In this document: one piece after another, positions 1 through 16,419 of the stretch
Layout: each line of letters starts with the position of its first letter
Numbering within the stretch: the first letter of the stretch is position 1
Origin: a virus
Length of the DNA stretch: 22,011 bases
Reading direction: 5' to 3' (one strand)
IMG/VR virus record: IMGVR_UViG_3300041409_001222
Location: 1-22,011 of that record
Program-made: the position numbers and the translations under genes
The notes under the pieces: generated by a model
What the model was told of the DNA's origin: nothing
What the model saw: only the letters and a program-made list of their open reading frames with translations
Database searches by the model: none

Positions 1-732
1 ATGTCTGACGTTAACAAACATGGACTGAAAAGATATATACCTGAAGATGTTAGAAGGCACGTTAGAGTTAGGGATGGTTTTGGCTGTGTAATATGTGCGA
101 CACCAATTGTGGACTATGAACATGTGGATCCGGAATTTGTTGATGCCCATAGACACGACGCTGATGCGATAACCTTACTATGTCCAACTTGTCACAGGAA
201 AGTAACAGGAAAAGAAATAAGCAAAGATTTGGTCAAGAAAGCAATGAGATCACCTGCGGCAAAGCAAAGAGGGACTATAGGAGATACGCTTTATTTTTGT
301 GACAGTCATCCTACAGTTATATTCGGCGGCGCAACTTTTGTCCATTGTGAGATTCCTCTTCAATTATTAGGGGAAGATGTGATTTCTATAACAGAAGAAG
401 ACGGAAAGTATTTTCTTAATGCTAAATTTTGGGACTCTCAAGGTAAACAAACATTGAGTATTATTAAAAATGAGTGGGTGGTTTCTTCTGAAAATGTGTG
501 GGATTTTGTAAAGGTTGCAAATAGATTCCATATTCAAGAACATGCTAAAGAACCCGCCATGATTATAGAAGTAAGAGATAATAGCACTTTAATAGTTCAG
601 CGTTTTAATATGTTTGTTCAAGGTAGATATAAAGTAATTGGTGATGAGTCTACGCTGAAAATTAACGGGCATCATTTCAGCGCCTTTGGATCCCATTACT
701 GTAAGTATGGGATAGTTTTTGCAAAAGAGTAA
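1..732 (+). CDS. HNH endonuclease-like accessory protein (243 aa)
   Basis: The first 70 residues hold a zinc-type HNH module: CxxC at C29/C32, an acidic-His element (E40-H41) in a YEHVDP context, and CPTCH (C61, C64, H65). HNH proteins of this kind are metal-dependent nucleases cutting DNA or RNA. The remaining ~170 residues are predicted beta-rich, match no domain I recognise, and may be a targeting or sensor part. The ATG is the first base of the window, so promoter and RBS are not visible and a longer N-terminus cannot be excluded. The gene is much more AT-rich than the late genes and converges on S with only 16 nt between the stop codons. It sits where P2 has orf30 (between S and V), a usual place for independently acquired phage cargo. 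Function is inferred only; defence, exclusion or homing are all possible. Confidence 0.75.
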   Translation: MSDVNKHGLKRYIPEDVRRHVRVRDGFGCVICATPIVDYEHVDPEFVDAHRHDADAITLLCPTCHRKVTGKEISKDLVKKAMRSPAAKQRGTIGDTLYFCDSHPTVIFGGATFVHCEIPLQLLGEDVISITEEDGKYFLNAKFWDSQGKQTLSIIKNEWVVSSENVWDFVKVANRFHIQEHAKEPAMIIEVRDNSTLIVQRFNMFVQGRYKVIGDESTLKINGHHFSAFGSHYCKYGIVFAKE

Positions 733-6479: not shown

Positions 6480-8246
6480 ATGAACATGACACCCGCCCCC
6501 GACGACCTCGATCCCCGCAGGCAGGCTTTACTGCTGTACTTTCAGGGATACCGTATCGCCCGCATTGCTGAAATGCTGGGAGAGAAACCCGCAACCGTTC
6601 ACAGCTGGAAAAAGCGAGATAAGTGGGGCGACTATGGCCCGCTGGATCAGATGCAGCTGACCACCGCCGCACGCTACTGCCAGCTCATCATGAAGGAGCA
6701 GAAGGAAGGGAAAGACTTTAAGGAAATCGACCTGCTGGCGCGGCAGTCCGAGCGCCACGCCCGGATCGGCAAATTCAGCAATGGCGGCAATGAAGCGGAC
6801 CTGAACCCGAACGTGGAGAACCGCAACAAAGGCCCGCGTAAGCCACCTGAAAAGAACCTGTTCAGCGACGAACAGATTGAGAAGCTGCAGGACGTTTTCC
6901 ACGGCTCGATGTTCGGCTATCAGCGCCAGTGGTGGGAGGCAGGGAATAAGTATTCAGTCCGCAACCTGCTGAAGTCTCGCCAGATCGGGGCCACCTTCTT
7001 TTTTGCCCGCGAGGCGCTGATCGATGCGCTGACCACCGGACGAAATCAGATATTCCTGTCGGCCAGTAAGGCGCAGGCGCACGTGTTCAAGCAGTACATC
7101 ATTGAATTCGCCCGCGAGGTGGACGTAGACCTGAAGGGCGACCCGATGACGCTCAGTAACGGCGCGTGCCTGTATTTCTTAGGCACCAACGCCCGCACCG
7201 CGCAGAGCTATCACGGCAATCTGTACCTGGATGAATATTTCTGGATACCGAAGTTTCAGGAACTGCAGAAAGTGGCGTCCGGTATGGCGCTGCACAAGAA
7301 GTGGCGCGAAACCTACTTTTCCACACCGTCCAGCCTGACGCACAGCGCCTATCCGTTCTGGTCCGGTTCGCAGTTCAATAAGGGCCGGGCCAAAGCGGAC
7401 AGGGTTGATATCAATCTCAGCCATCAGTCACTGGCCGCCGGCCGCCTCTGCGAAGACGGCCAGTTTCGCCAGATCGTCACCGTTGAAGATGCGGTGCGCG
7501 GCGGCTGTGACCTGTTTGACCTGGAGCAGCTGCGCACGCGCTACAGCCCGGAGGACTACCAGAACCTGCTGATGTGCGTCTTTATGGACGATCTGGCGTC
7601 GGTGTTCCAGCTGGCCATGCTGCAGAAGTGCATGGTGGACAGCTGGGAAGTCTGGACCGACTTTGAAGCGCTGGCGCTGCGGCCGTTCGGCTGGAAAGAG
7701 GTCTGGATCGGCTATGACCCTGCGAAGGGAACGCAGAACGGCGACAGTGCCGGATGTGTGGTCATGGCACCGCCTGCCGTGCCGGGCGGTAAGTTCCGCA
7801 TCCTTGAGCGCCACCAGTGGCGCGGGATGGACTTCCGGGCGCAGGCTGACGCCATCAGGACGCTGACGCAGCAGTATAACGTCACCTATATCGGCATCGA
7901 CTCCACCGGCGTCGGGCTGGGCGTGTATGAGAACGTCAAAGCCTTCTTCCCGCAGGTGAAGGAGTTTGTCTATAACCCGAACGTGAAGAACGCTCTGGTG
8001 CTGAAGGCTTACGACACCATCGCCAGCGGGCGGCTTGAGTTTGACGCCAGTCACCTCGACATCGCACAGTCATTCATGTCTATCCGCAAGGCCACCACGG
8101 CCAGCGGCAACCGTCCGACCTATGAAACCAGCCGCAGCGAGGAAGTCAGCCACGGCGATTTAGCCTGGGCGACCATGCACGCGCTGGCAAACGAGCCGCT
8201 GCAGGGACAGGCGGCACACACGCAGAACATTGTGGAGATTTACTGA
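6480..8246 (+). CDS. P: Terminase large subunit, ATPase P
   Basis: 588 aa (P2 gpP 590 aa); powers DNA translocation into the procapsid and works with gpM at cos. An N-terminal helix-turn-helix (about residues 22-48, ending TVHSWKKR) precedes the ATPase: Walker A-like KSRQIGAT (165-172) and Walker B LYLDE (248-252, D251/E252). The C-terminal RNase H-like part has acidic residues in GYDPAKG (D413) and GIDSTG (D474). The ATG at 6480 has no good Shine-Dalgarno sequence close to it; a second ATG two codons on is the alternative. P is divergent from O and its stop overlaps the Q start by one base. Confidence 0.95.
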   Translation: MNMTPAPDDLDPRRQALLLYFQGYRIARIAEMLGEKPATVHSWKKRDKWGDYGPLDQMQLTTAARYCQLIMKEQKEGKDFKEIDLLARQSERHARIGKFSNGGNEADLNPNVENRNKGPRKPPEKNLFSDEQIEKLQDVFHGSMFGYQRQWWEAGNKYSVRNLLKSRQIGATFFFAREALIDALTTGRNQIFLSASKAQAHVFKQYIIEFAREVDVDLKGDPMTLSNGACLYFLGTNARTAQSYHGNLYLDEYFWIPKFQELQKVASGMALHKKWRETYFSTPSSLTHSAYPFWSGSQFNKGRAKADRVDINLSHQSLAAGRLCEDGQFRQIVTVEDAVRGGCDLFDLEQLRTRYSPEDYQNLLMCVFMDDLASVFQLAMLQKCMVDSWEVWTDFEALALRPFGWKEVWIGYDPAKGTQNGDSAGCVVMAPPAVPGGKFRILERHQWRGMDFRAQADAIRTLTQQYNVTYIGIDSTGVGLGVYENVKAFFPQVKEFVYNPNVKNALVLKAYDTIASGRLEFDASHLDIAQSFMSIRKATTASGNRPTYETSRSEEVSHGDLAWATMHALANEPLQGQAAHTQNIVEIY

Positions 8247-9277
8247 TGAGCAAACGCAGGAACCGCACCCGCACGCAGCCAGTGCCGCAGCCGGATAACA
8301 TGATCAGCGGGGCAGCGTCGGAGGCGTTTACCTTTGGCGACCCGATCCCGGTGCTGGACCGCCGCGAACTGCTGGATTACGTGGAGTGCGTTATCAATGA
8401 TCGCTGGTATGAACCGCCCGTAAGCGTTGACGGGCTGGCGCGCACGTTCCGCGCCGCCGTGCATCACAGCTCACCCATCAGCGTAAAGTGCAATATTCTG
8501 GCGAGCACCTTTATCCCGCATCCGCTTCTGAGTCAGCAGGCTTTCAGCCGCTTTGCGCTGGATTACCTGATTTTCGGCAATGCCTATCTGGAGAAGCGGA
8601 CCAGCCGCCTCGGTAACGTGCTGAAGCTGGAGCCGCCGCTGGCGAAGTTTACCCGGCGTGGCCTTGACCTGGACACGTACTGGTATGCGCACTATGGCAT
8701 TAACACGGAGCCGTATGAGTTTGCGAAGGGCAGCGTGTTTCACCTGATGGAGCCGGATATCAATCAGGAGATTTACGGCCTGCCGGGCTACCTGTCGGCT
8801 ATCCCGTCGGCGCTGCTGAATGAGTCGGCTACACTGTTCCGCCGCAAGTATTACCTTAACGGCAGCCATGCGGGTTTCATCATGTACATGACCGACCCGG
8901 CGCAGAGTCAGCAGGACGTGGACAATATCCGCGGTGCCATGAAAAGCGCAAAAGGCCCTGGCAACTTCCGTAACCTGTTTATGTACAGCCCGAACGGGAA
9001 AAAGGACGGCATCCAGATCATCCCACTGTCAGAGGTAGCGGCAAAGGATGAGTTTCTGAATATCAAGAATGTCAGCCGTGACGATATGCTGGCCGTGCAT
9101 CGCGTTCCGCCGCAGCTGATGGGGATTATCCCCAGCAACACGGGCGGGTTTGGAGACGTTGAAAAGGCCAGCAAAGTGTTTGTGCGTAATGAACTTATGC
9201 CATTGCAGAGACGCTTTGAGGAATTGAATGAGTGGGTGGGCGAGAGGATTATAAGGTTTGAAACGTACAACCTTTAA
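8246..9277 (+). CDS. Q: Portal protein Q
   Basis: 343 aa (P2 gpQ 344 aa), the PBSX/P2-type portal ring at the unique head vertex through which DNA enters and leaves. Recognisable family segments include LLDYVECVINDRWYEPPV near residue 40, PDINQEIYGLPGYLSA in the middle and the conserved VHRVPPQLMGIIPSNTGGFG toward the end. It is translationally coupled to P (TGATG) and is followed directly by a hairpin terminator. As in P2 it lies on the cos side of P, although here two extra genes separate it from cos. Confidence 0.95.
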   Translation: MSKRRNRTRTQPVPQPDNMISGAASEAFTFGDPIPVLDRRELLDYVECVINDRWYEPPVSVDGLARTFRAAVHHSSPISVKCNILASTFIPHPLLSQQAFSRFALDYLIFGNAYLEKRTSRLGNVLKLEPPLAKFTRRGLDLDTYWYAHYGINTEPYEFAKGSVFHLMEPDINQEIYGLPGYLSAIPSALLNESATLFRRKYYLNGSHAGFIMYMTDPAQSQQDVDNIRGAMKSAKGPGNFRNLFMYSPNGKKDGIQIIPLSEVAAKDEFLNIKNVSRDDMLAVHRVPPQLMGIIPSNTGGFGDVEKASKVFVRNELMPLQRRFEELNEWVGERIIRFETYNL

Positions 9278-9286
9278 TAGATAAAT

Positions 9287-9308
9287 GGGTGCGTTAAGCA
9301 CCCTTTTT
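9287..9308 (+). terminator. Intrinsic terminator of the P-Q operon
   Basis: A perfect six-base stem GGGTGC / GCACCC (9287-9292 and 9298-9303) with loop GTTAA is followed by TTTTT. It lies 9 nt after the Q stop. The stop codon of the converging membrane-protein gene is inside the loop, so the hairpin may serve both strands, although the T run favours the plus strand. Confidence 0.85.
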
Positions 9309-9995
9309 AATATTGTAACATCTTGGGTTGGACACCTGCTCCACATTGTTTATAACCTCAACAAACTTACTGTCTTTTATCTCCTTTAAGTAGAAAACAC
9401 CCTTACCATCTTTACACTCCTTCAAAATAAACAACCCACTAAATTCCCCTACGACTAATTTTTTATCTTCTGTTTCCCATAAAGTTGAAGCAAATTGGTT
9501 ATGATAGTTGACCCCAGCTAAAAAACTTGATACCGCCATCACAATAGCTGTTCCAGTTAAAGCCCAAAAGTTTACTTCAAGAGCACCTTCTTTTTTAGTT
9601 AGCATGCCTGAAGAAATATATACTGTGAACCAAGATGCAATCCCAAAAACGCCCCCATTAAGATAGATTACCGGATCTGTTTTTCCACTTCTTATATTGT
9701 ATATATATGAGAACACAGTAAGTGCGATGATTACCCAGAGTAAATATTTAATGTTTTCGGCCTTGAGTTTCCCATCATTACCAAAAAAGTGTACTACGCT
9801 ACCGATTATAGTGAAGAAGTAAATTAATAGCTTTAAAGAAATATTTATTACACTAGTGAGGTCAAGGTTTATATAGTATGTGGGGTAGCCGAAATAGATG
9901 GCTTCGCCGACTTTAAAACAATATGCATTTATAAATAGCACAGCAGTCAAAAGAGTAATGATTGGGAAGTCTAGCTTAGAGTTTATGCTTATCAT
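9294..9995 (-). CDS. Multi-pass membrane protein, accessory gene between Q and cos (233 aa)
   Basis: Not recognised. It has about five hydrophobic segments (residues ~10-27, 48-70, 83-99, 113-130, 143-161) and then a soluble ~70-residue C-terminal region with the pattern VVGEFSGLFILKECKDGKGV and two cysteines (in ECKDG and PRCYN). The gene is strongly AT-rich compared with the neighbouring Q and P genes and lies on the opposite strand, converging on Q. In P2 almost nothing separates Q from cos, so this is an insert. The ATG at 9995 has no convincing Shine-Dalgarno sequence. A superinfection-exclusion or membrane-effector role would fit the position, but nothing in the sequence proves it. Confidence 0.7.
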   Translation of the reverse strand: MISINSKLDFPIITLLTAVLFINAYCFKVGEAIYFGYPTYYINLDLTSVINISLKLLIYFFTIIGSVVHFFGNDGKLKAENIKYLLWVIIALTVFSYIYNIRSGKTDPVIYLNGGVFGIASWFTVYISSGMLTKKEGALEVNFWALTGTAIVMAVSSFLAGVNYHNQFASTLWETEDKKLVVGEFSGLFILKECKDGKGVFYLKEIKDSKFVEVINNVEQVSNPRCYNIKKGA

Positions 9996-10051: not shown

Positions 10052-10342
10052 CTATTCTTTAATAAGACTACCCCAGTCGAGGTCAGACTCTTCAACTACA
10101 ATATTAATAATGCAATGCACGTGATCATCGTTAATCCTAACGTAATTGAAAAGCTTTGTTTTGACAACTCCAGAGAAAGAAGAGCGGGAATCATCGTTAG
10201 AGATATTTACGTAATCACCTACGTTAGGGAGAATAAGCAAGGCGTTCTCTTCTGATGAGCAGCTTACTATATCTCCATCATCAATAGGCCTTGAATTCCC
10301 TTTAGGCAGATATTGATAATCGTAACCATATGTAGTTTTCAT
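10052..10342 (-). CDS. Small acidic protein of unknown function beside cos (96 aa)
   Basis: Not recognised. From the ATG at 10342 the product is 96 aa, acidic and likely mostly beta strand, with an N-terminal MKTTYGYDYQYLPKG, then a SSEENALLILPNVGDYVNIS segment and a C-terminus ending VVEESDLDWGSLIKE. The start was chosen because GGAGG lies seven bases upstream; the ATG five codons earlier overlaps that GGAGG. It has its own promoter (10376-10404), a palindrome near the start of transcription, and a hairpin terminator, so it is a self-contained expression unit of the kind called a moron. The genes around it are late genes that are silent in the lysogen, so expression from the prophage is plausible. 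Confidence 0.75.
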   Translation of the reverse strand: MKTTYGYDYQYLPKGNSRPIDDGDIVSCSSEENALLILPNVGDYVNISNDDSRSSFSGVVKTKLFNYVRINDDHVHCIINIVVEESDLDWGSLIKE

Positions 10343-10361
10343 TTTTAGAACCTCCAACGAT

Positions 10362-10654: not shown

Positions 10655-11539
10655 TCAAGCTGATAATGGCACTGAAACCCCTTTAAGAGTGTCAGGTACT
10701 GAAATTTTTGGGGAAAAAATCATGACTTCTTCTCCGGATTTTTTTTGTTGCGCAGTATATTGTAAGGAATATTCAACTCGCGGAAAATTGCTATAGATAT
10801 TCTTGATTTCTTCTGCATTGTCGTAAGAAACAAGCCAATTCGGGAAGTTTATTTCCTCAAGTTTCTTCATGACGAGCACATGATCATCGTGATCATAAAA
10901 ATTACGATACAACCCTTGACCTTTAACATAATAGGGAGGGTCTAAATATAAAAGAATTTTATTTTTATCGGCCTTTCCAAGGCTATCCATGAAATTCAAA
11001 CCCTCAAGGAAATCTATCGCATCCAAATTAGTAACAACAATTCTCTGATTATAATTTGCTATACTTTCGATTCTTGTTATTAAATCTTCACGATTAAAGC
11101 GCACATCCATCTTCCATTTCCCATCTTGCGCTTTTCCACCTATCACTCCTGCTTTTAAAATACCAGAACGATTAGTCCTATTTAAGAAGAATGCAGAAAA
11201 ACCAACTTCAAGTTTTGAGAACTCTGAAGGATTAGAAATAACATGACGATGAAAGCACCATTCTTCCATATTAATTTTGGCTGTGCTAATCAGCTTGCAA
11301 AGATTTTCAGTATCATCAACCACTGATGACCAAAAAGAATAGACCGCAAAGTCAGCATCATTAATATAAATCTTACGAACATATTCTTCTAATAACAATT
11401 CTAAGGCTACCCCTGCACCTCCAGCATATGGTTCAGCATAAGCTCCATCGTTTAACCGATTTTGCTCAATGACATCTTTTAAAAAATAAGATAACTTTCC
11501 TTTTCCGCCGGGATATCTTAGTGGGGTATAAAATTTCAT
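10655..11539 (-). CDS. D12-class N6-adenine DNA methyltransferase (294 aa)
   Basis: Transfers a methyl group from AdoMet to adenine N6. The order of motifs is that of the D12/Dam class: YPGGKGKL (9-16), the AdoMet motif AEPYAGGAG (35-43), FFLNRTNRSGI (117-127) and the catalytic DPPY (D200-Y203). The sequence is clearly different from the prophage's second Dam-like enzyme (16419-17219), so its target site may differ. The ATG at 11539 has AGAGG about seven bases upstream. It follows the ParB-like gene on the same strand after 69 nt that contain a perfect inverted repeat. No restriction-endonuclease gene is visible beside it. It is AT-rich and occupies the cos-A interval, where P2 has tin and old; it could protect self DNA in a defence system or modify phage DNA against host restriction. 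Confidence 0.9.
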   Translation of the reverse strand: MKFYTPLRYPGGKGKLSYFLKDVIEQNRLNDGAYAEPYAGGAGVALELLLEEYVRKIYINDADFAVYSFWSSVVDDTENLCKLISTAKINMEEWCFHRHVISNPSEFSKLEVGFSAFFLNRTNRSGILKAGVIGGKAQDGKWKMDVRFNREDLITRIESIANYNQRIVVTNLDAIDFLEGLNFMDSLGKADKNKILLYLDPPYYVKGQGLYRNFYDHDDHVLVMKKLEEINFPNWLVSYDNAEEIKNIYSNFPRVEYSLQYTAQQKKSGEEVMIFSPKISVPDTLKGVSVPLSA

Positions 11540-11573
11540 ATCTACCTCTCAAGCTTGATCCCACATCATATCA

Positions 11574-11599
11574 AAACATAGACATCCATGTCTATGTTT
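11574..11599. repeat. Perfect 12-bp inverted repeat between ParB-like and methyltransferase genes
   Basis: AAACATAGACAT and ATGTCTATGTTT flank a two-base CC centre. It lies between the stop of the ParB-like gene (11609) and the methyltransferase start (11539). In RNA the leftward transcript would form a strong stem followed by TTTTGAT, so it could be a partial terminator that limits methyltransferase expression; as DNA it could be an operator bound by either product. Confidence 0.8.
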
Positions 11600-11608
11600 G
11601 TCTTAATT

Positions 11609-13108
11609 TCAATCGCCCCAGATCAGGCTAATCAAAACTTCAAAATTATCCCATTCAGTATTAACAGCCTCTTTTGACAAAATCAGATGAGGATTATGGA
11701 CATATTGCTGCAAAGAGCCATTATGTTTAGTTATTTGGCTTGAATGAGTTATCACAGCTGTACATTGACTACCTGTCATTTTTTTTCTATCACGAAGATA
11801 GTGCGCGCACATTATAACTTTGTCGTGCAGGCCCGGATTCCTATTTGCATCTTTCTGACCAATCTGATTATCTTCTATAAAAGTACTTACAGAAAGGTCA
11901 ATGAATATACGTAATAATATAGATATTGCGTTTGGAGTAGAGTCAAATGTCAAATGACTTTTTAGCTCACTAAATATACGAGAACACTTTTTATGTCCTC
12001 TAAAATTAAGCTTGACATAGGACGGTATTAGGTTGTTTCGATCAATTTTTGGAGTGGCTTTATTCTTTCCTTTTTTCTTATCTTCTCCATCACCTTCAAA
12101 TTCAGACTCTGATTTATCTTTATCTTCAGAATAATCATCATTCTTTTTTTCTTGATTTTCAGAAGAGCTATCCCTGCTTTCTTTGATATCATCTACATCT
12201 GCAGGACTCTCATCTTCAAACTCTTCATTAACTGGTTGAGTTGAAACCTCCGGATTCGATTCAAGTAAACTCCACGGCTTATTTAAAACCATTTCAGATG
12301 ATTTGATACTTTGCTCAATAATAAAATTGACCCTATCATCTTGACTTCGAATTCTATTTACTGTGAAGCAAGGTTTCCCCTTTTCATCCTCTTCAATCAT
12401 TACTGCCAAAATATTTTTAAGTTGAGACTGAAATCGCTGATAAGGTTGAAAGCAATATAATATGCCATCAATGCTTTTTAAATTAAAGTAATCACGAACC
12501 TTTAGATCGCCAAAGAGGCGAGTTATATTTGTTATTCTTAGTAATTTCTTTTTCTCTAATATTTCTTTGAAATAATCAGTATTTAATTCTAAAAAGGTGA
12601 ATAGTTGATTACCAAATGATTGTTTACCATTTCTAGCCATATGTCTGGCTTTTTCTGGTGCCGTCCACTCGACCCTTCCTACTCCTCCATTTTGGCCGGT
12701 ATGCTTTAAATTCACCCAATGTTCGTAATCGTCATTATCAAAAACTACGCAATTATCAATGATCTTTATATCTTTGGATTGAGTGATTTTGAGCTTTTCA
12801 AAAGCCTTTCTTGCTCTTTCATTAGGGGCGAGTTTAGGGGATAACAACAACTTGAGTGCAGTAACTCGTCGATTTCCTTCTGCTACCACATAAAAACCAT
12901 CTTCATCTTCACTAGGATATACCAAAACATTCTCAGACGGGTCCAAGCCTTTTGCAACGATATCCTTGGCCAAGCGGTAGATGCGGTCGTACTGCAAATC
13001 TAGCATTTTAGCTATAGCGTCGCGTTGGTTTTCAGCTGATACAGGAAAGCGAGAGTTGTCTACATCCAAAAGTAACTTGTTGATATTCATTGATTTAATT
13101 TGATTCAT
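11609..13108 (-). CDS. ParB/sulfiredoxin-fold protein with acidic linker and helical C-terminal domain (499 aa)
   Basis: The N-terminal ~110 residues look like a ParB-N/Srx domain: a leading strand-loop (INKLLLDVDNSRFP, 9-22), then the nucleotide-binding box VVAEGNRRVTALKLL with G78-N79-R80-R81. A helical middle follows to ~270. Residues ~290-370 are a very acidic then lysine-rich, low-complexity linker. The C-terminal ~130 residues are predicted helical and end in a conserved-looking SLQQYVHNPHL...WDNFEVLISLIWG pattern. In related folds this box binds CTP or ATP; some members are nucleases. The ATG at 13108 is preferred because GAGGA lies nine bases upstream; the frame extends 20 codons to 13168 without a good RBS. 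It is far too divergent and wrongly placed to be a partition ParB, and there is no parA. A sensor or effector partnered with the methyltransferase is my inference. Confidence 0.8.
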   Translation of the reverse strand: MNQIKSMNINKLLLDVDNSRFPVSAENQRDAIAKMLDLQYDRIYRLAKDIVAKGLDPSENVLVYPSEDEDGFYVVAEGNRRVTALKLLLSPKLAPNERARKAFEKLKITQSKDIKIIDNCVVFDNDDYEHWVNLKHTGQNGGVGRVEWTAPEKARHMARNGKQSFGNQLFTFLELNTDYFKEILEKKKLLRITNITRLFGDLKVRDYFNLKSIDGILYCFQPYQRFQSQLKNILAVMIEEDEKGKPCFTVNRIRSQDDRVNFIIEQSIKSSEMVLNKPWSLLESNPEVSTQPVNEEFEDESPADVDDIKESRDSSSENQEKKNDDYSEDKDKSESEFEGDGEDKKKGKNKATPKIDRNNLIPSYVKLNFRGHKKCSRIFSELKSHLTFDSTPNAISILLRIFIDLSVSTFIEDNQIGQKDANRNPGLHDKVIMCAHYLRDRKKMTGSQCTAVITHSSQITKHNGSLQQYVHNPHLILSKEAVNTEWDNFEVLISLIWGD

Positions 13109-13353
13109 TAAAACATCCTCTGTCGAATTCTTGACGTCAAAAGATCCATTTTTTATCATAATTTGCATACTAGCAATAGGGTTGAATGTATTATCACTTC
13201 TGCGGTGAATCGTTCTCGTTCCCGCATGTTTAATCCTTATTGGCTTTTTAATCCGACAATTTACACAGACAGTTTAAATTTTTGATAAATCTTGCTGACG
13301 TGCTGCAAGCGCTGAATAAAAGCATTTAGATAGTGCTAATCATCATTTTTGAA

Positions 13354-14031: not shown

Positions 14032-16419
14032 TCAGATCCATTGACGCCACTTATCGTCTTCCTGCAGCCGCCCGTTCCGGTAAAAAATTCTCATCCCCGC
14101 GCCAGAACTGATACTGCCACCGGCCAGAAGCAGGTTTGTTTCATTCTCTTGACCGGTAAAACCTCTCGCTAGCAACTCTGCAACCAGAAGCGCCCGCTGA
14201 TCGTCATCAATTTGCTGCTTGTAACCCTTTTTCTGACGCGGTTTCACTACCCGGAGACGCGCCAGCAGATCCCGGCGCTGTTTTCTGGTCATATTGTCGA
14301 AATCTCCCGGACCATAAAGAGGCGTTTCACCCGGTTCTATAGGTTCAACAGATACCGGTTTGCCCCCTGAAATGTTCAGTTTTTCATCAAGGGGACAGTT
14401 ATTGCCACGAGTCCAAGGGGCGCTAGCGCCCTGGTCGGCTGTCGCCTCCTGGTCGGCTGTCGCCTCCTGAACGTCAACGGCCTTACGGACCATCTTCCAC
14501 TTTGTTGCGTGCGTGCAGATACGGCCCGCCACTAACGGGGACCAGATGCCATAAATGCGGGTGCCGTGATCGCCGTAAGGGGTAGGCTCGTCGTTAAGCT
14601 CGTAAGCCGTCCTGACGATGTGATGTTTGCGCGGAACCAGTACGCCGCCCTGTTTCATGATGTAGGTGGCAAAGCAGCCCACATCTGCAGCGGCCAGCAC
14701 GGCGTCCAGCTGAGCGTTTTCAAGCACCGGCGCACCTGCTTTTTTATCGCTCTGATTTCTCAGCGCCTGACCGGCAAGCAGACGCAGTTCCCGGTAAGCC
14801 TGGCGGCCCGGAATACCAAAGAAGCGGAACTGCTGAACGCGATGAAGTGACGCCCACGCGCCTACGTTCTCCGCGCTGTCACGCAGGGATTTTCCGGTTT
14901 CGTTGCTGATTTCATCGGACAGGCCACGGGCATCAATATTTTTACTCACGTACTTAGCGATATAACTGGTCGGTGAACCTTTGCGCGGGTTGATGAGTTC
15001 AGCTTTAAAGCGTGGCCCGGTATTGTTGCCAAGCTCTTCGCGGTCTTCGCGAATGGCAAATTTCCGCAGCAGTGCGGTAACTGAACGGCGCTCTTTTTTG
15101 CGCATGAAGCACAGCAGGTGCCAGTGTACGGTGCCATCATGATGCGGCTCCGCAACCCGCACGCCATACCAGCGCATCCCGCCTTTATGCATGGCCTTAC
15201 GGAAAGCAGCAAAGGTATCGACCAGATAATCACTGCTCTGGCGAACGGTGGCCGTGGTCCACTTCGGATTCGGCCTGCCGTTGTTAAGCGTTGCGTGGAA
15301 ACGTGACGGGCAGGTGATAGTGTAAAACACGGCGCAGTCGCCGCGCATTTTCGCGATAAGCTCCAGCCCTTTAACACAGGCCATCATTTCATTGCGGCGA
15401 TGTGCCGGGTTGCTGTTACTGGCATTTACCACGTCTTCCATATCCAGCGTATCGCCTTCATTACTGATCAGCTCATGTGAGCGGAAGAACTCCAGAGACT
15501 TCCTGCGCTGCTCACGCTTATGGATCACCGCCTCATAGCTGACGTAGGGGGACGCTTTTTTGTTGACCAGGCAGACAGCACGCAGCTGCTCTTCACGCCA
15601 TTCACAACGCAGCTGCCACAGCTTGCGATACCACCAGTCCGCGCAGAGCATACGGGCCAGCGAGGGCGGGATCAGATCATAGGGTACGGGCTTGCGACGG
15701 CGCTTTTTGCGGCGCAGGCGCTCAAAGGCCGGGGGGATTACGTCCAGGCGCATCGCTTCCGCTGCAACCAGTTCCCATGCCTGGCGGACCTGCTCCGGCG
15801 TCACGTCATCACTGACGAACAGATGGCCGCTGGCCTTATCCAGACACATGCTCATGTGCGCAGCGACCAGCGTAGATAAACGCTTGACCTGATTCTGGTT
15901 CATTTCAGGCAACGCCAGCAGGCCGTCCAGCCCGTCATGACCGGCCATAAAACGGAATGAGGCTGAAATCTGGCTTTCGCGCACGCGGGCTAGCCTCTCA
16001 AGGCAGGGGCGAATAGTTTCGCGCAGGTAGCGGGAATAAGCCTGCGGCCTGCCGAGATTGTGGAAAAACTTAACGCGCTCCATGAGTGGCTTGCTGATGT
16101 GCGAAGGCTGGGCGCTAACATCGGCCACGATGACTAGATCGGGATTGTGTTGCTGCTGTTCGCGGGCCATCTTTGCCCGGCTGATAATTCTGTCCTGCAC
16201 AATTTCACGCTGGACGGGATCGCGGGACTCGTTGAAAAAATAGCGCTCCCAAACCTCATCACTCAAAGCCTCACGGCGCAGCTGTTCCTGCTTGTTATCC
16301 GCTGCATAGAGAGTGATTAGGTTTGAAAGCGCGGACACCGGCGTAACTTCCGCCGGGTCCAGCTTTGGATTGATTGCCTTTTTAGGGGCATTCCATGGGT
16401 ATGCGTAAACCTGAGTCAT
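14032..16419 (-). CDS. A: Replication initiation endonuclease A (HUH superfamily)
   Basis: 795 aa (P2 gpA 761 aa). It nicks one strand at the phage origin and starts rolling-circle replication, covalently joined through tyrosine. The HUH motif is VHWH (H432, H434), motif 1 is [11 protein letters not shown] (365-375), and the twin catalytic tyrosines are in [10 protein letters not shown] (Y486 and Y490), the same YxxxY spacing as P2 Y450/Y454. A basic patch RRKKRRRKP lies near residue 236-244. In P2 the origin lies inside A; I cannot place it here. A stretch near residue 665 carries a six-residue tandem repeat (EATADQ twice). The ATG overlaps the dam stop by one base (TAATG). It is the last gene of the cox-to-A early operon. 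Confidence 0.95.
14418..14466. repeat. Palindrome and 18-bp tandem repeat inside A
   Basis: A perfect 14-bp palindrome GGGCGCTAGCGCCC (14418-14431) is followed at once by two exact tandem copies of CTGGTCGGCTGTCGCCTC (14431-14448 and 14449-14466). The repeat is in frame and encodes the doubled ATADQE motif of the A protein. It sits in the weakly conserved C-terminal region. Confidence 0.85.

What the first reader, a model, noticed from the sequence alone, without database searches (positions are those of the whole stretch)
10655..13168. ParB-like protein plus D12 adenine methyltransferase at the P2 old/tin locus: candidate two-gene anti-phage system
Seen: two co-directional AT-rich genes between cos and A. 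The first has a GNRR nucleotide-binding box, a long acidic linker and a helical C-terminal domain; the second has complete D12 methyltransferase motifs. No restriction endonuclease is present, and the phage already carries a separate Dam. Known: this interval in P2-family phages holds tin and old and is a recognised hotspot for defence genes. Inference: the methyltransferase marks self while the ParB-like protein, using a nucleotide-dependent switch, senses or attacks unmodified DNA.
Basis: partly seen in the sequence, partly recalled or inferred. Interest (0 to 1): 0.78.

Follow-up and report, generated by a model that had tools for sequence, protein, structure and literature searches.

The report
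Prophage PD-lambda-5 anti-phage gene pair
The two genes are a prophage copy of PD-lambda-5, an anti-phage system already shown to work in E. coli, and comparison with relatives suggests that one protein checks DNA for the methyl mark left by the other and sets off a toxic domain when the mark is missing.

Summary
Window 10655-11539(-) encodes a D12 adenine methyltransferase (B) and 11609-13108(-) a 499-aa ParB-like protein (A), in the P2 hotspot between replication gene A and portal gene Q. It is not a new candidate: both hit PADLOC's PD-Lambda-5 profiles (E 4e-169, 1e-122). PD-lambda-5 was validated experimentally in 2022 (PMC9519451); 22 of 5426 E. coli genomes hold the pair at about 74% DNA identity.

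New here: (1) A models as a ParB-CTPase fold, a disordered linker and a HEPN-like domain lacking the canonical HEPN arginine. (2) Of 88 full-length relatives, 86 have a B-type methylase within 150 bases; the other two have one further off. (3) Of 20 relatives without that domain, 19 have another methylase nearby (16 cytosine, 3 adenine) and 15-19 a separate, possibly Mrr-like gene. One ParB-like domain thus goes with exchangeable methylases and effectors. Best-supported mechanism: B marks self, A's ParB-like switch reads DNA, the HEPN-like domain fires on unmarked DNA. No activity was tested. Known system; the mechanism is a testable hypothesis.

The parts
11609..13108 (-). PD-Lambda-5_A: 499-aa ParB-like / HEPN-like protein (the ORF can be read from 13168, 519 aa)
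   Evidence: PADLOC PDLC03998 E 4e-169; PHROG 9592 E 5e-183, unknown function; start at 13108 as in L003
12626..13108 (-). ParB-CTPase-like fold, residues 1-161 of A
   Evidence: AlphaFold2 model; 7bm8 (CTP-bound ParB) Z 10.3, rmsd 2.1, 98 aligned; Foldseek E 8.7e-4
12866..12880 (-). Box II / P motif EGNRR, residues 77-81 of A
   Evidence: invariant in 64 of 64 relatives
12062..12223 (-). disordered linker, residues 296-349 of A
   Evidence: pLDDT under 50; length and acidity vary in relatives
11612..12004 (-). HEPN-like helical domain, residues 369-499 of A; R400, D404, H471
   Evidence: domain folded alone pLDDT 93, pTM 0.89; HEPN structures lead the rows by Z; H471 64 of 64, E/D404 64 of 64, R400 59 of 64
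10655..11539 (-). PD-Lambda-5_B: D12-class N6-adenine DNA methyltransferase, 294 aa
   Evidence: PDLC04018 E 1e-122; Pfam PF02086 E 3e-16; PDB relative 7m6b E 7e-14
11093..11182 (-). putative target-recognition hairpin of B (NRTNRSGI...RFN), residues 120-149
   Evidence: holds the most conserved 20-residue block of B over 71 methylases (0.80); role as target-recognition element recalled from Dam
10931..10942 (-). catalytic DPPY motif of B, residues 200-203
   Evidence: DPP[YF] in 71 of 71
14032..16419 (-). P2-type replication gene A (hotspot border)
   Evidence: Pfam Phage_GPA E 1e-128
8246..9277 (+). portal gene Q (hotspot border)
   Evidence: phrog_68 portal E 3e-169

Best explanation
The pair is PD-lambda-5. 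B methylates an adenine in one particular DNA sequence on the host chromosome and the prophage, marking self. A has a ParB-like nucleotide switch that reads DNA; on DNA without the mark (an incoming phage) it changes state and activates its HEPN-like C-terminal domain, which harms the infected cell or blocks the phage (an RM-plus-abortive-infection logic). Shown here: membership, position, co-occurrence, the ParB fold with conserved Box I and II, the HEPN-like fold of the model, the coupling of domain make-up to methylase. Shown by others: anti-phage activity of the system. Inferred: that B marks self, that A reads the mark, that a nucleotide switch is used, and that the HEPN-like domain is the effector.
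For: Membership. Protection by the system in E. [quoted passage not shown]). Same hotspot in the two E. coli genomes opened; whole pair in 22 of 5426 genomes. Co-occurrence: 86 of 88 relatives of 420 aa or more have a D12 methylase within 150 b, 10 of them in convergent orientation; the two others have it behind an AAA ATPase gene and elsewhere in the same phage record. A and B distances correlate (Mantel r 0.43, 0 of 2000 permutations, 71 pairs). ParB fold and HEPN-like fold. Relatives without the HEPN-like domain have another methylase (19 of 20) and another candidate effector (15 to 19 of 20). Two apparent disruptions fit: a C-domain remnant of A beside a transposase gene with B kept (L215), and loss of the HEPN-like domain together with B (L053 against L049).
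Against: Sequence profiles hardly see HEPN: hhalign of the C-domain against HepT gives probability 0.3%, one of 64 members hits a Csm6 HEPN model at only 0.063, and Foldseek's best E for the domain is 0.34. The canonical HEPN Rx4-6H arginine is absent in 64 of 64, so RNase activity is unproven. Nucleotide binding is unproven; in PMC12704722 only 11 of 28 purified ParB-fold proteins bound an NTP (passages). Three loci of short relatives show no methylase by our profiles (L054-L056). Shared inheritance alone can give the Mantel correlation. B-type methylases also sit beside HerA-type genes, so B is not exclusive to A.
Confidence: 0.5

Rival explanations
1. Direct restriction: A (or A with a host nuclease) cleaves or nicks DNA that lacks B's mark, and infected cells survive.
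For: Short relatives of A are followed by a gene with a D-x3-D motif (15 of 20 by one seed, 4 more by a profile that includes them); one relative of that gene hits Pfam Mrr_cat above its cut-off. ParB-fold proteins work in DNA restriction systems (SspE 6jiv Z 4.8, BrxU 7p9k Z 4.2). Related methylases sit beside HerA-type genes and, in one of two scanned loci, a NurA gene.
Against: No nuclease profile in A itself; none of 88 long relatives has the Mrr-like gene within 2.1 kb; the C-domain fold is HEPN-like, not PD-(D/E)XK or HNH.
Confidence: 0.22
2. Toxin-antitoxin style: B holds A inactive by protein contact or by some other modification, and phage interference with B or with DNA releases A. 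DNA methylation state is not read.
For: Tight pairing; HEPN-fold toxins such as HepT are held in check by a partner enzyme (recalled; HepT structures are among the matches).
Against: The putative target-recognition hairpin of B is its most conserved block, which fits selection for a fixed DNA target. Most HEPN-free relatives pair with a non-homologous C5 methylase (16 of 20), so a specific A-B protein interface is unlikely to be the common factor.
Confidence: 0.15
3. Not defence in this phage: A and B serve phage DNA metabolism, epigenetic timing or evasion of host restriction.
For: PMC12704722 suggests anti-defence or phage-host roles for phage ParB-methylase fusions (passage).
Against: PD-lambda-5 protects E. 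coli against phages (PMC9519451); the genes lie in the accessory hotspot, which holds other genes in Fels-2.
Confidence: 0.08

Closest known systems
PD-lambda-5 (Vassallo et al. 2022, PMC9519451; PADLOC PD-Lambda-5_A/B)
   Same: Both components over full length, gene order and P2 hotspot as in the E. coli copies opened.
   Different: About 74% DNA identity to the E. coli copies.
PADLOC candidate PDC-M38 (profile PDC-M38A)
   Same: Four of four short HEPN-free relatives of A tested hit it (E 3e-13 to 7e-25).
   Different: A separate, possibly Mrr-like gene and a mostly C5 methylase in place of the fused HEPN-like domain and the D12 methylase. No paper naming it was found.
ParB-fold restriction and modification proteins: SspE, BrxU/GmrSD, DndI/DndB
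   Same: A ParB-like NTPase domain tied to reading of DNA modification (fold rows 6jiv, 7p9k, 9jfl; roles from passages or abstracts).
   Different: Their effector is an HNH-type nuclease (GmrSD; SspE recalled); A has a HEPN-like domain and its partner is a D12 adenine methylase. Fold similarity is weak (Z 3.3-4.8).
HEPN toxins (HepT, AbiA, Csm6)
   Same: Fold of the C-domain: Z about 8 over 113-118 residues; that the matched part of AbiA is a HEPN domain is recalled.
   Different: No Rx4-6H arginine; a conserved arginine instead sits in an earlier helix, and in one group a lysine precedes the histidine.
Type II restriction-modification
   Same: A D12 methylase whose relatives include PADLOC type II methylases.
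   Different: No cognate endonuclease profile in the pair.

Membership tests
PD-lambda-5 | PD-Lambda-5_A protein over full length | tested here: met
   PDLC03998 E 4.1e-169, profile 1-464 of 466
PD-lambda-5 | PD-Lambda-5_B methylase over full length | tested here: met
   PDLC04018 E 1e-122, profile 1-280 of 291
PD-lambda-5 | both genes adjacent | tested here: met
   69 bases between them
PD-lambda-5 | protects against phages | not testable with these tools
   shown by others for PD-lambda-5 (PMC9519451), not for this copy
ParB-CTPase fold | fold of the N-terminal domain | tested here: met
   7bm8 Z 10.3, rmsd 2.1, 98 aligned; the top 13 rows are ParB, Noc, KorB or PadC. By sequence PF02195 is weak: 4 of 64 members, best E 0.018
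ParB-CTPase fold | Box I (C motif) and Box II (GxxR P motif) | tested here: met
   L46, A47, I50, G54, P57 in 90% or more; EGNRR 64 of 64; motif names from passages, the assignment of Box I residues is mine
ParB-CTPase fold | Box III; HTH domain; ParA partner | not tested
   -
ParB-CTPase fold | binds CTP or another NTP | not testable with these tools
   -
HEPN superfamily | HEPN helical fold | tested here: met
   rows 1-21 by Z (8.3-5.5) are mostly entries titled HEPN, HepT or Csm6 (others, such as AbiA, YutE and archaeal proteins, are HEPN-like by recall); other proteins begin at Z 5.0 (likewise). Weak by Foldseek (best E 0.34), and Z about 8 can arise by a common helical arrangement
HEPN superfamily | catalytic Rx4-6H motif | tested here: not met
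   R at -5 of the conserved H in 0 of 64; R/K at -4 to -6 in 1 of 64. Not filed as a HEPN ribonuclease, only as HEPN-like in fold
Type II restriction-modification | cognate restriction endonuclease | tested here: not met
   no endonuclease profile in A or B; among 64 relatives of A the 25 shown of 36 Pfam families hold only one weak nuclease-like hit (NYN_YacP, 1 member, E 0.032)
Dam (GATC) methylases | Dam-subfamily score and target hairpin | tested here: not met
   TIGR00571 47.9 bits against a cut-off of 114.85; hairpin NRTNRSGI...RFN differs from the window's own Dam-like [17 protein letters not shown]

The most novel reading that the evidence does not exclude
A modular immune class in which one ParB-like NTP switch reads DNA methylation and is coupled to interchangeable methylases (m6A or m5C) and interchangeable effectors (fused HEPN-like domain, separate possibly Mrr-like nuclease, or AAA ATPase). 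PD-lambda-5 would then be its abortive branch: a methylation-gated ParB switch that fires a HEPN-like domain with a rearranged active site.
Probability: 0.4. Interest if true: 0.75.

Novelty: new member of a known kind. Interest (0 to 1): 0.47.

Why it matters
PD-lambda-5 gave relatively broad protection in the 2022 E. coli screen (PMC9519451), and the searches made here turned up no paper about its mechanism. Of the 11 papers that name it I opened passages of two; bioRxiv and most subscription journals are not held. If the modular reading is right, it is a restriction-modification logic in which recognition is done by a ParB-type switch and the punishment can be swapped from DNA cutting to cell shutdown. 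That can be tested with point mutants in laboratory E. coli.

Tried and rejected
The idea of a new two-gene system was dropped. Pfam, NCBIfam and PHROGs give no function for A, and phmmer against PDB sequences finds nothing. A profile of 64 relatives finds in the PDB only four weak rows (one of them ParB-like, 6ryk, E 0.46). Sequence comparison of the C-domain with HepT gave no match, so HEPN rests on fold alone. Phage and plasmid records hold few relatives (4 and 3 records). A megablast of the hotspot against E. coli covered at most 6% of the query; the slower search found the pair. Literature searches for a mechanism under other names gave nothing useful.

Rows dropped before the count: 14 of 124 (fragments, genes cut by a contig end, or under 1000 bases downstream, listed there). 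Among them are L037-L039, whose wider loci L054-L056 show no methylase, and L036, whose wider locus L053 has none either. The two largest scans were capped at the best 80 of 91 and of 116 relatives. The 110 rows include the window's own copy (L013) and a 99% copy (L002). The fifth A-only genome (G331, a 739-aa frame, E 5e-12) was not followed. My first cut called 21 short relatives 'without methylase', because it counted only D12 genes within 150 bases; one search corrected this. One of the 21 (L123) proved to be a HEPN-type gene in two frames. The profile for the Mrr-like gene was built from nine genes, seven of them from the loci then counted; with the single seed of L188 the count is 15 of 20, not 19.
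Full report
What is there. Two minus-strand genes lie in an AT-rich island (GC about 0.33-0.39; flanking phage genes about 0.5-0.64) between the P2-type replication gene A (14032-16419) and the portal gene Q (8246-9277). Going with transcription, the first is A (11609-13108, 499 aa; an in-frame ATG at 13168 gives 519 aa) and the second B (10655-11539, 294 aa), 69 bases apart. The window is a 22-kb virus record. The best match among named phage records is Fels-2 (44% of the window covered, 78% identity), which carries other genes in the same interval.

Identity. A hits PADLOC PD-Lambda-5_A at E 4.1e-169 over 464 of 466 positions, and B hits PD-Lambda-5_B at 1e-122. Pfam sees only the methylase. 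In E. coli, 127 of 5426 genomes give some match to the pair's DNA and 22 hold it over at least 80% of its length; all 22 are listed, with both genes covered, at about 74% identity. In the two I opened, the pair sits between the replication endonuclease and the portal gene, exactly as here. PD-lambda-5 was found by functional selection; it affected plating or plaque size of all but one of ten phages, and its authors remark that it appears to be a compacted RM+Abi system (PMC9519451, section 7 read whole, other passages). So the finding is an instance of a known system, not a new candidate.

Co-occurrence. Scans with A alone (the last two capped at 80 loci) gave 124 rows, distinct over residues 31-200, with the ParB-like domain. 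Fourteen were dropped before counting (fragments, contig ends, short flanks), leaving 110 (95 clusters at 80% identity), the window's own copy included. Of 88 with 420 or more residues, 82 also hit the C-domain profile, and 86 have a D12 methylase within 150 bases. In ten (nine clusters) the methylase is convergent, on the opposite strand, so the pairing does not depend on one operon order. Of the two others, L031/L048 has the methylase behind an AAA_15 ATPase gene, and the Vibrio phage PQ189353 (L058) has a B-type methylase, 43% identical to B, elsewhere in its record. A and B distance matrices correlate (Spearman 0.43 over 71 pairs, 0 of 2000 permutations), as expected if they travel together.

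The reverse view. In 394 genomes of one order, 14 have an A-domain match at 1e-10 and 11 a B match at 1e-40. Of these 11, nine have both genes side by side or, in G049, with the ATPase between. One (G384, L215) has B beside a 94-aa fragment that hits only the C-domain profile, next to a DDE transposase gene; the contig ends just behind the transposase, so the rest of A was not seen. One (G106), and two further copies in G039, have B-type methylases with two neighbours of about 700 and 460 aa: the first is HerA-type by Pfam in both loci scanned, the second is NurA in L217 but hits nothing in L216, and L218 was not scanned. B-type methylases thus serve more than one system. Of the five A-only genomes, four are discussed below (L053-L056) and one (G331) was not followed.

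Relatives without the HEPN-like domain. Twenty-two of the 110 are shorter than 420 aa. One (L132) is cut at its 5' end and has B adjacent. Of the other 21, one (L123) is a HEPN-type gene in two frames, with B downstream. Of the remaining 20, 19 have a DNA methylase within 2.1 kb: 16 cytosine-5 (found with one seed; Pfam DNA_methylase 2e-62 and NCBIfam dcm 8e-56 for the two members scanned) and 3 D12; the contig of the 20th ends too early to tell. Next to the ParB-like gene lies a gene of about 330 aa (H) in 15 of 20 by a search with one seed, and in 19 of 20 by a profile that includes the four extra ones by position, 19-21% identical to the seed. H keeps D-x3-D in 9 of 9 aligned, mostly followed by a Q, as in Mrr-like PD-(D/E)XK enzymes; only one member of the eight scanned hits Mrr_cat (E 5e-5, above cut-off), so its nuclease nature is likely, not shown. 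The one without H (L148) has an AAA_15 ATPase instead. None of the 88 long relatives has H within 2.1 kb. Against the rule: three wider loci of short relatives, not in the 110, show no methylase by the D12 or C5 searches (L054-L056; two have H, the third the Mrr_cat protein). The short proteins also match a PADLOC candidate, PDC-M38A (four of four tested), for which no paper was found.

Structure. AlphaFold2 on an alignment of 64 relatives gives pLDDT 86 with one disordered linker, 296-349; pTM is 0.47, so the placing of the domains relative to each other is not known. Residues 1-161 match ParB, Noc, KorB and PadC (7bm8: Z 10.3, rmsd 2.1, 98 aligned; Foldseek E 8.7e-4). Box I positions, Box II (EGNRR), N18, R20, H136, W148 and R197 are among the most conserved residues of A. 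The C-domain folded alone gives pLDDT 93, pTM 0.89. Its matches with the highest Z are HEPN entries (HepT, AMPylated HEPN toxins, Csm6 and others; Z 5.5-8.4) and the abortive-infection protein AbiA (Z 8.3); other proteins begin at Z 5.0. Caution: Foldseek's best E for the domain is 0.34, a sequence profile comparison with seven HepT-type proteins fails, only one of 64 members hits a HEPN model in Pfam among the families shown (Csm6, E 0.063), and Z about 8 is not decisive for helical bundles.

An unusual HEPN-like site. The C-domain keeps one histidine in 64 of 64 (H471) and an acidic residue in 64 of 64 (404), but the arginine that canonical HEPN nucleases carry 4-6 residues before that histidine (HepT-type sequences show RN...H) is missing in all 64 at -5. 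Instead an arginine at 400, in an earlier helix, is present in 59 of 64; in the four members with tryptophan there (29-39% identical to each other), a lysine directly precedes the histidine, and in no other member. This covariation suggests that the basic residue was supplied from another place. The four may descend from one event, so this is a lead, not a proof.

The methylase. The block at residues 121-140, which in Dam forms the target-recognition hairpin (recalled), is the best conserved 20-residue block of B (mean 0.80 against 0.20-0.71 elsewhere, 71 methylases), while methylases of restriction systems usually diverge there (recalled). It differs from the hairpin of the window's own Dam-like methylase. 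I infer that PD-lambda-5 methylases share one fixed target that is not GATC.

How it most likely works. Nearly every version examined couples the ParB-like domain to a DNA methylase, but methylase chemistry and attached effector vary. The simplest reading is that the ParB-like domain is the common reader or switch, the methylase supplies the self mark, and the HEPN-like domain, H or the ATPase is the exchangeable punishment. Two apparent natural disruptions fit: the remnant of A in L215 with B kept, and L053 (95% identical to L049 over the first 263 residues), where the HEPN-like domain and B are missing together. Steps shown: membership, position, pairing, modelled folds, conserved pockets. 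Steps inferred: methylation by B, recognition of unmarked DNA, nucleotide use, HEPN action. ParB-fold proteins that bind ATP, CTP or GTP have been measured, though only 11 of 28 tested bound any (PMC12704722, passages).

Novelty. The system is known; this copy is a new member. The domain reading of A, the exchangeable-effector pattern and the odd HEPN-like site did not appear in the listings and passages seen, but the library lacks preprints and most subscription journals, supplements and figures could not be opened, and nine of the eleven papers naming PD-lambda-5 were seen as listings only, so they may be in print elsewhere.

Noticed in passing
window 9294-9995 and 10052-10357, minus strand: Two AT-rich accessory genes between the pair and the portal gene: a 233-aa protein with long hydrophobic stretches (phrog_35408) and a 101-aa protein (phrog_12676), both of unknown function; possible further hotspot cargo.
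   Followed up: partly
window 1-732, plus strand: AT-rich 243-aa gene beside the tail-completion gene, weak HNH (Pfam 0.003, below cut-off; PHROG HNH families about 1e-5; best phrog_6544, unknown function); a second accessory site.
   Followed up: partly
L195, L186, L188 and other short-relative loci: Three-gene relatives: short ParB-like gene, a possibly Mrr-like gene, and a mostly convergent C5 methylase. Five of the 17 cluster representatives share a neighbour that looks like the P2 replication protein, so they may compete for the same hotspot.
   Followed up: partly
L048:2298-3965 and L148:6282-7898: AAA_15/AAA_21 ATPase genes lying between the ParB-like gene and the D12 methylase: a possible third branch.
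   Followed up: partly
L216, L217, L218: B-type D12 methylases beside HerA-type genes and a gene that is NurA-like in L217.
   Followed up: partly
L215:3974-6489: B next to a fragment that hits only the C-domain profile, with a DDE transposase gene beyond it at the contig end: probably a natural knock-out of A with B kept.
   Followed up: partly
L043:5644-5725 and L044:4644-4725: A truncated DUF3850 gene directly behind the replication gene in both E. coli prophages, annotated as frameshifted.
   Followed up: no
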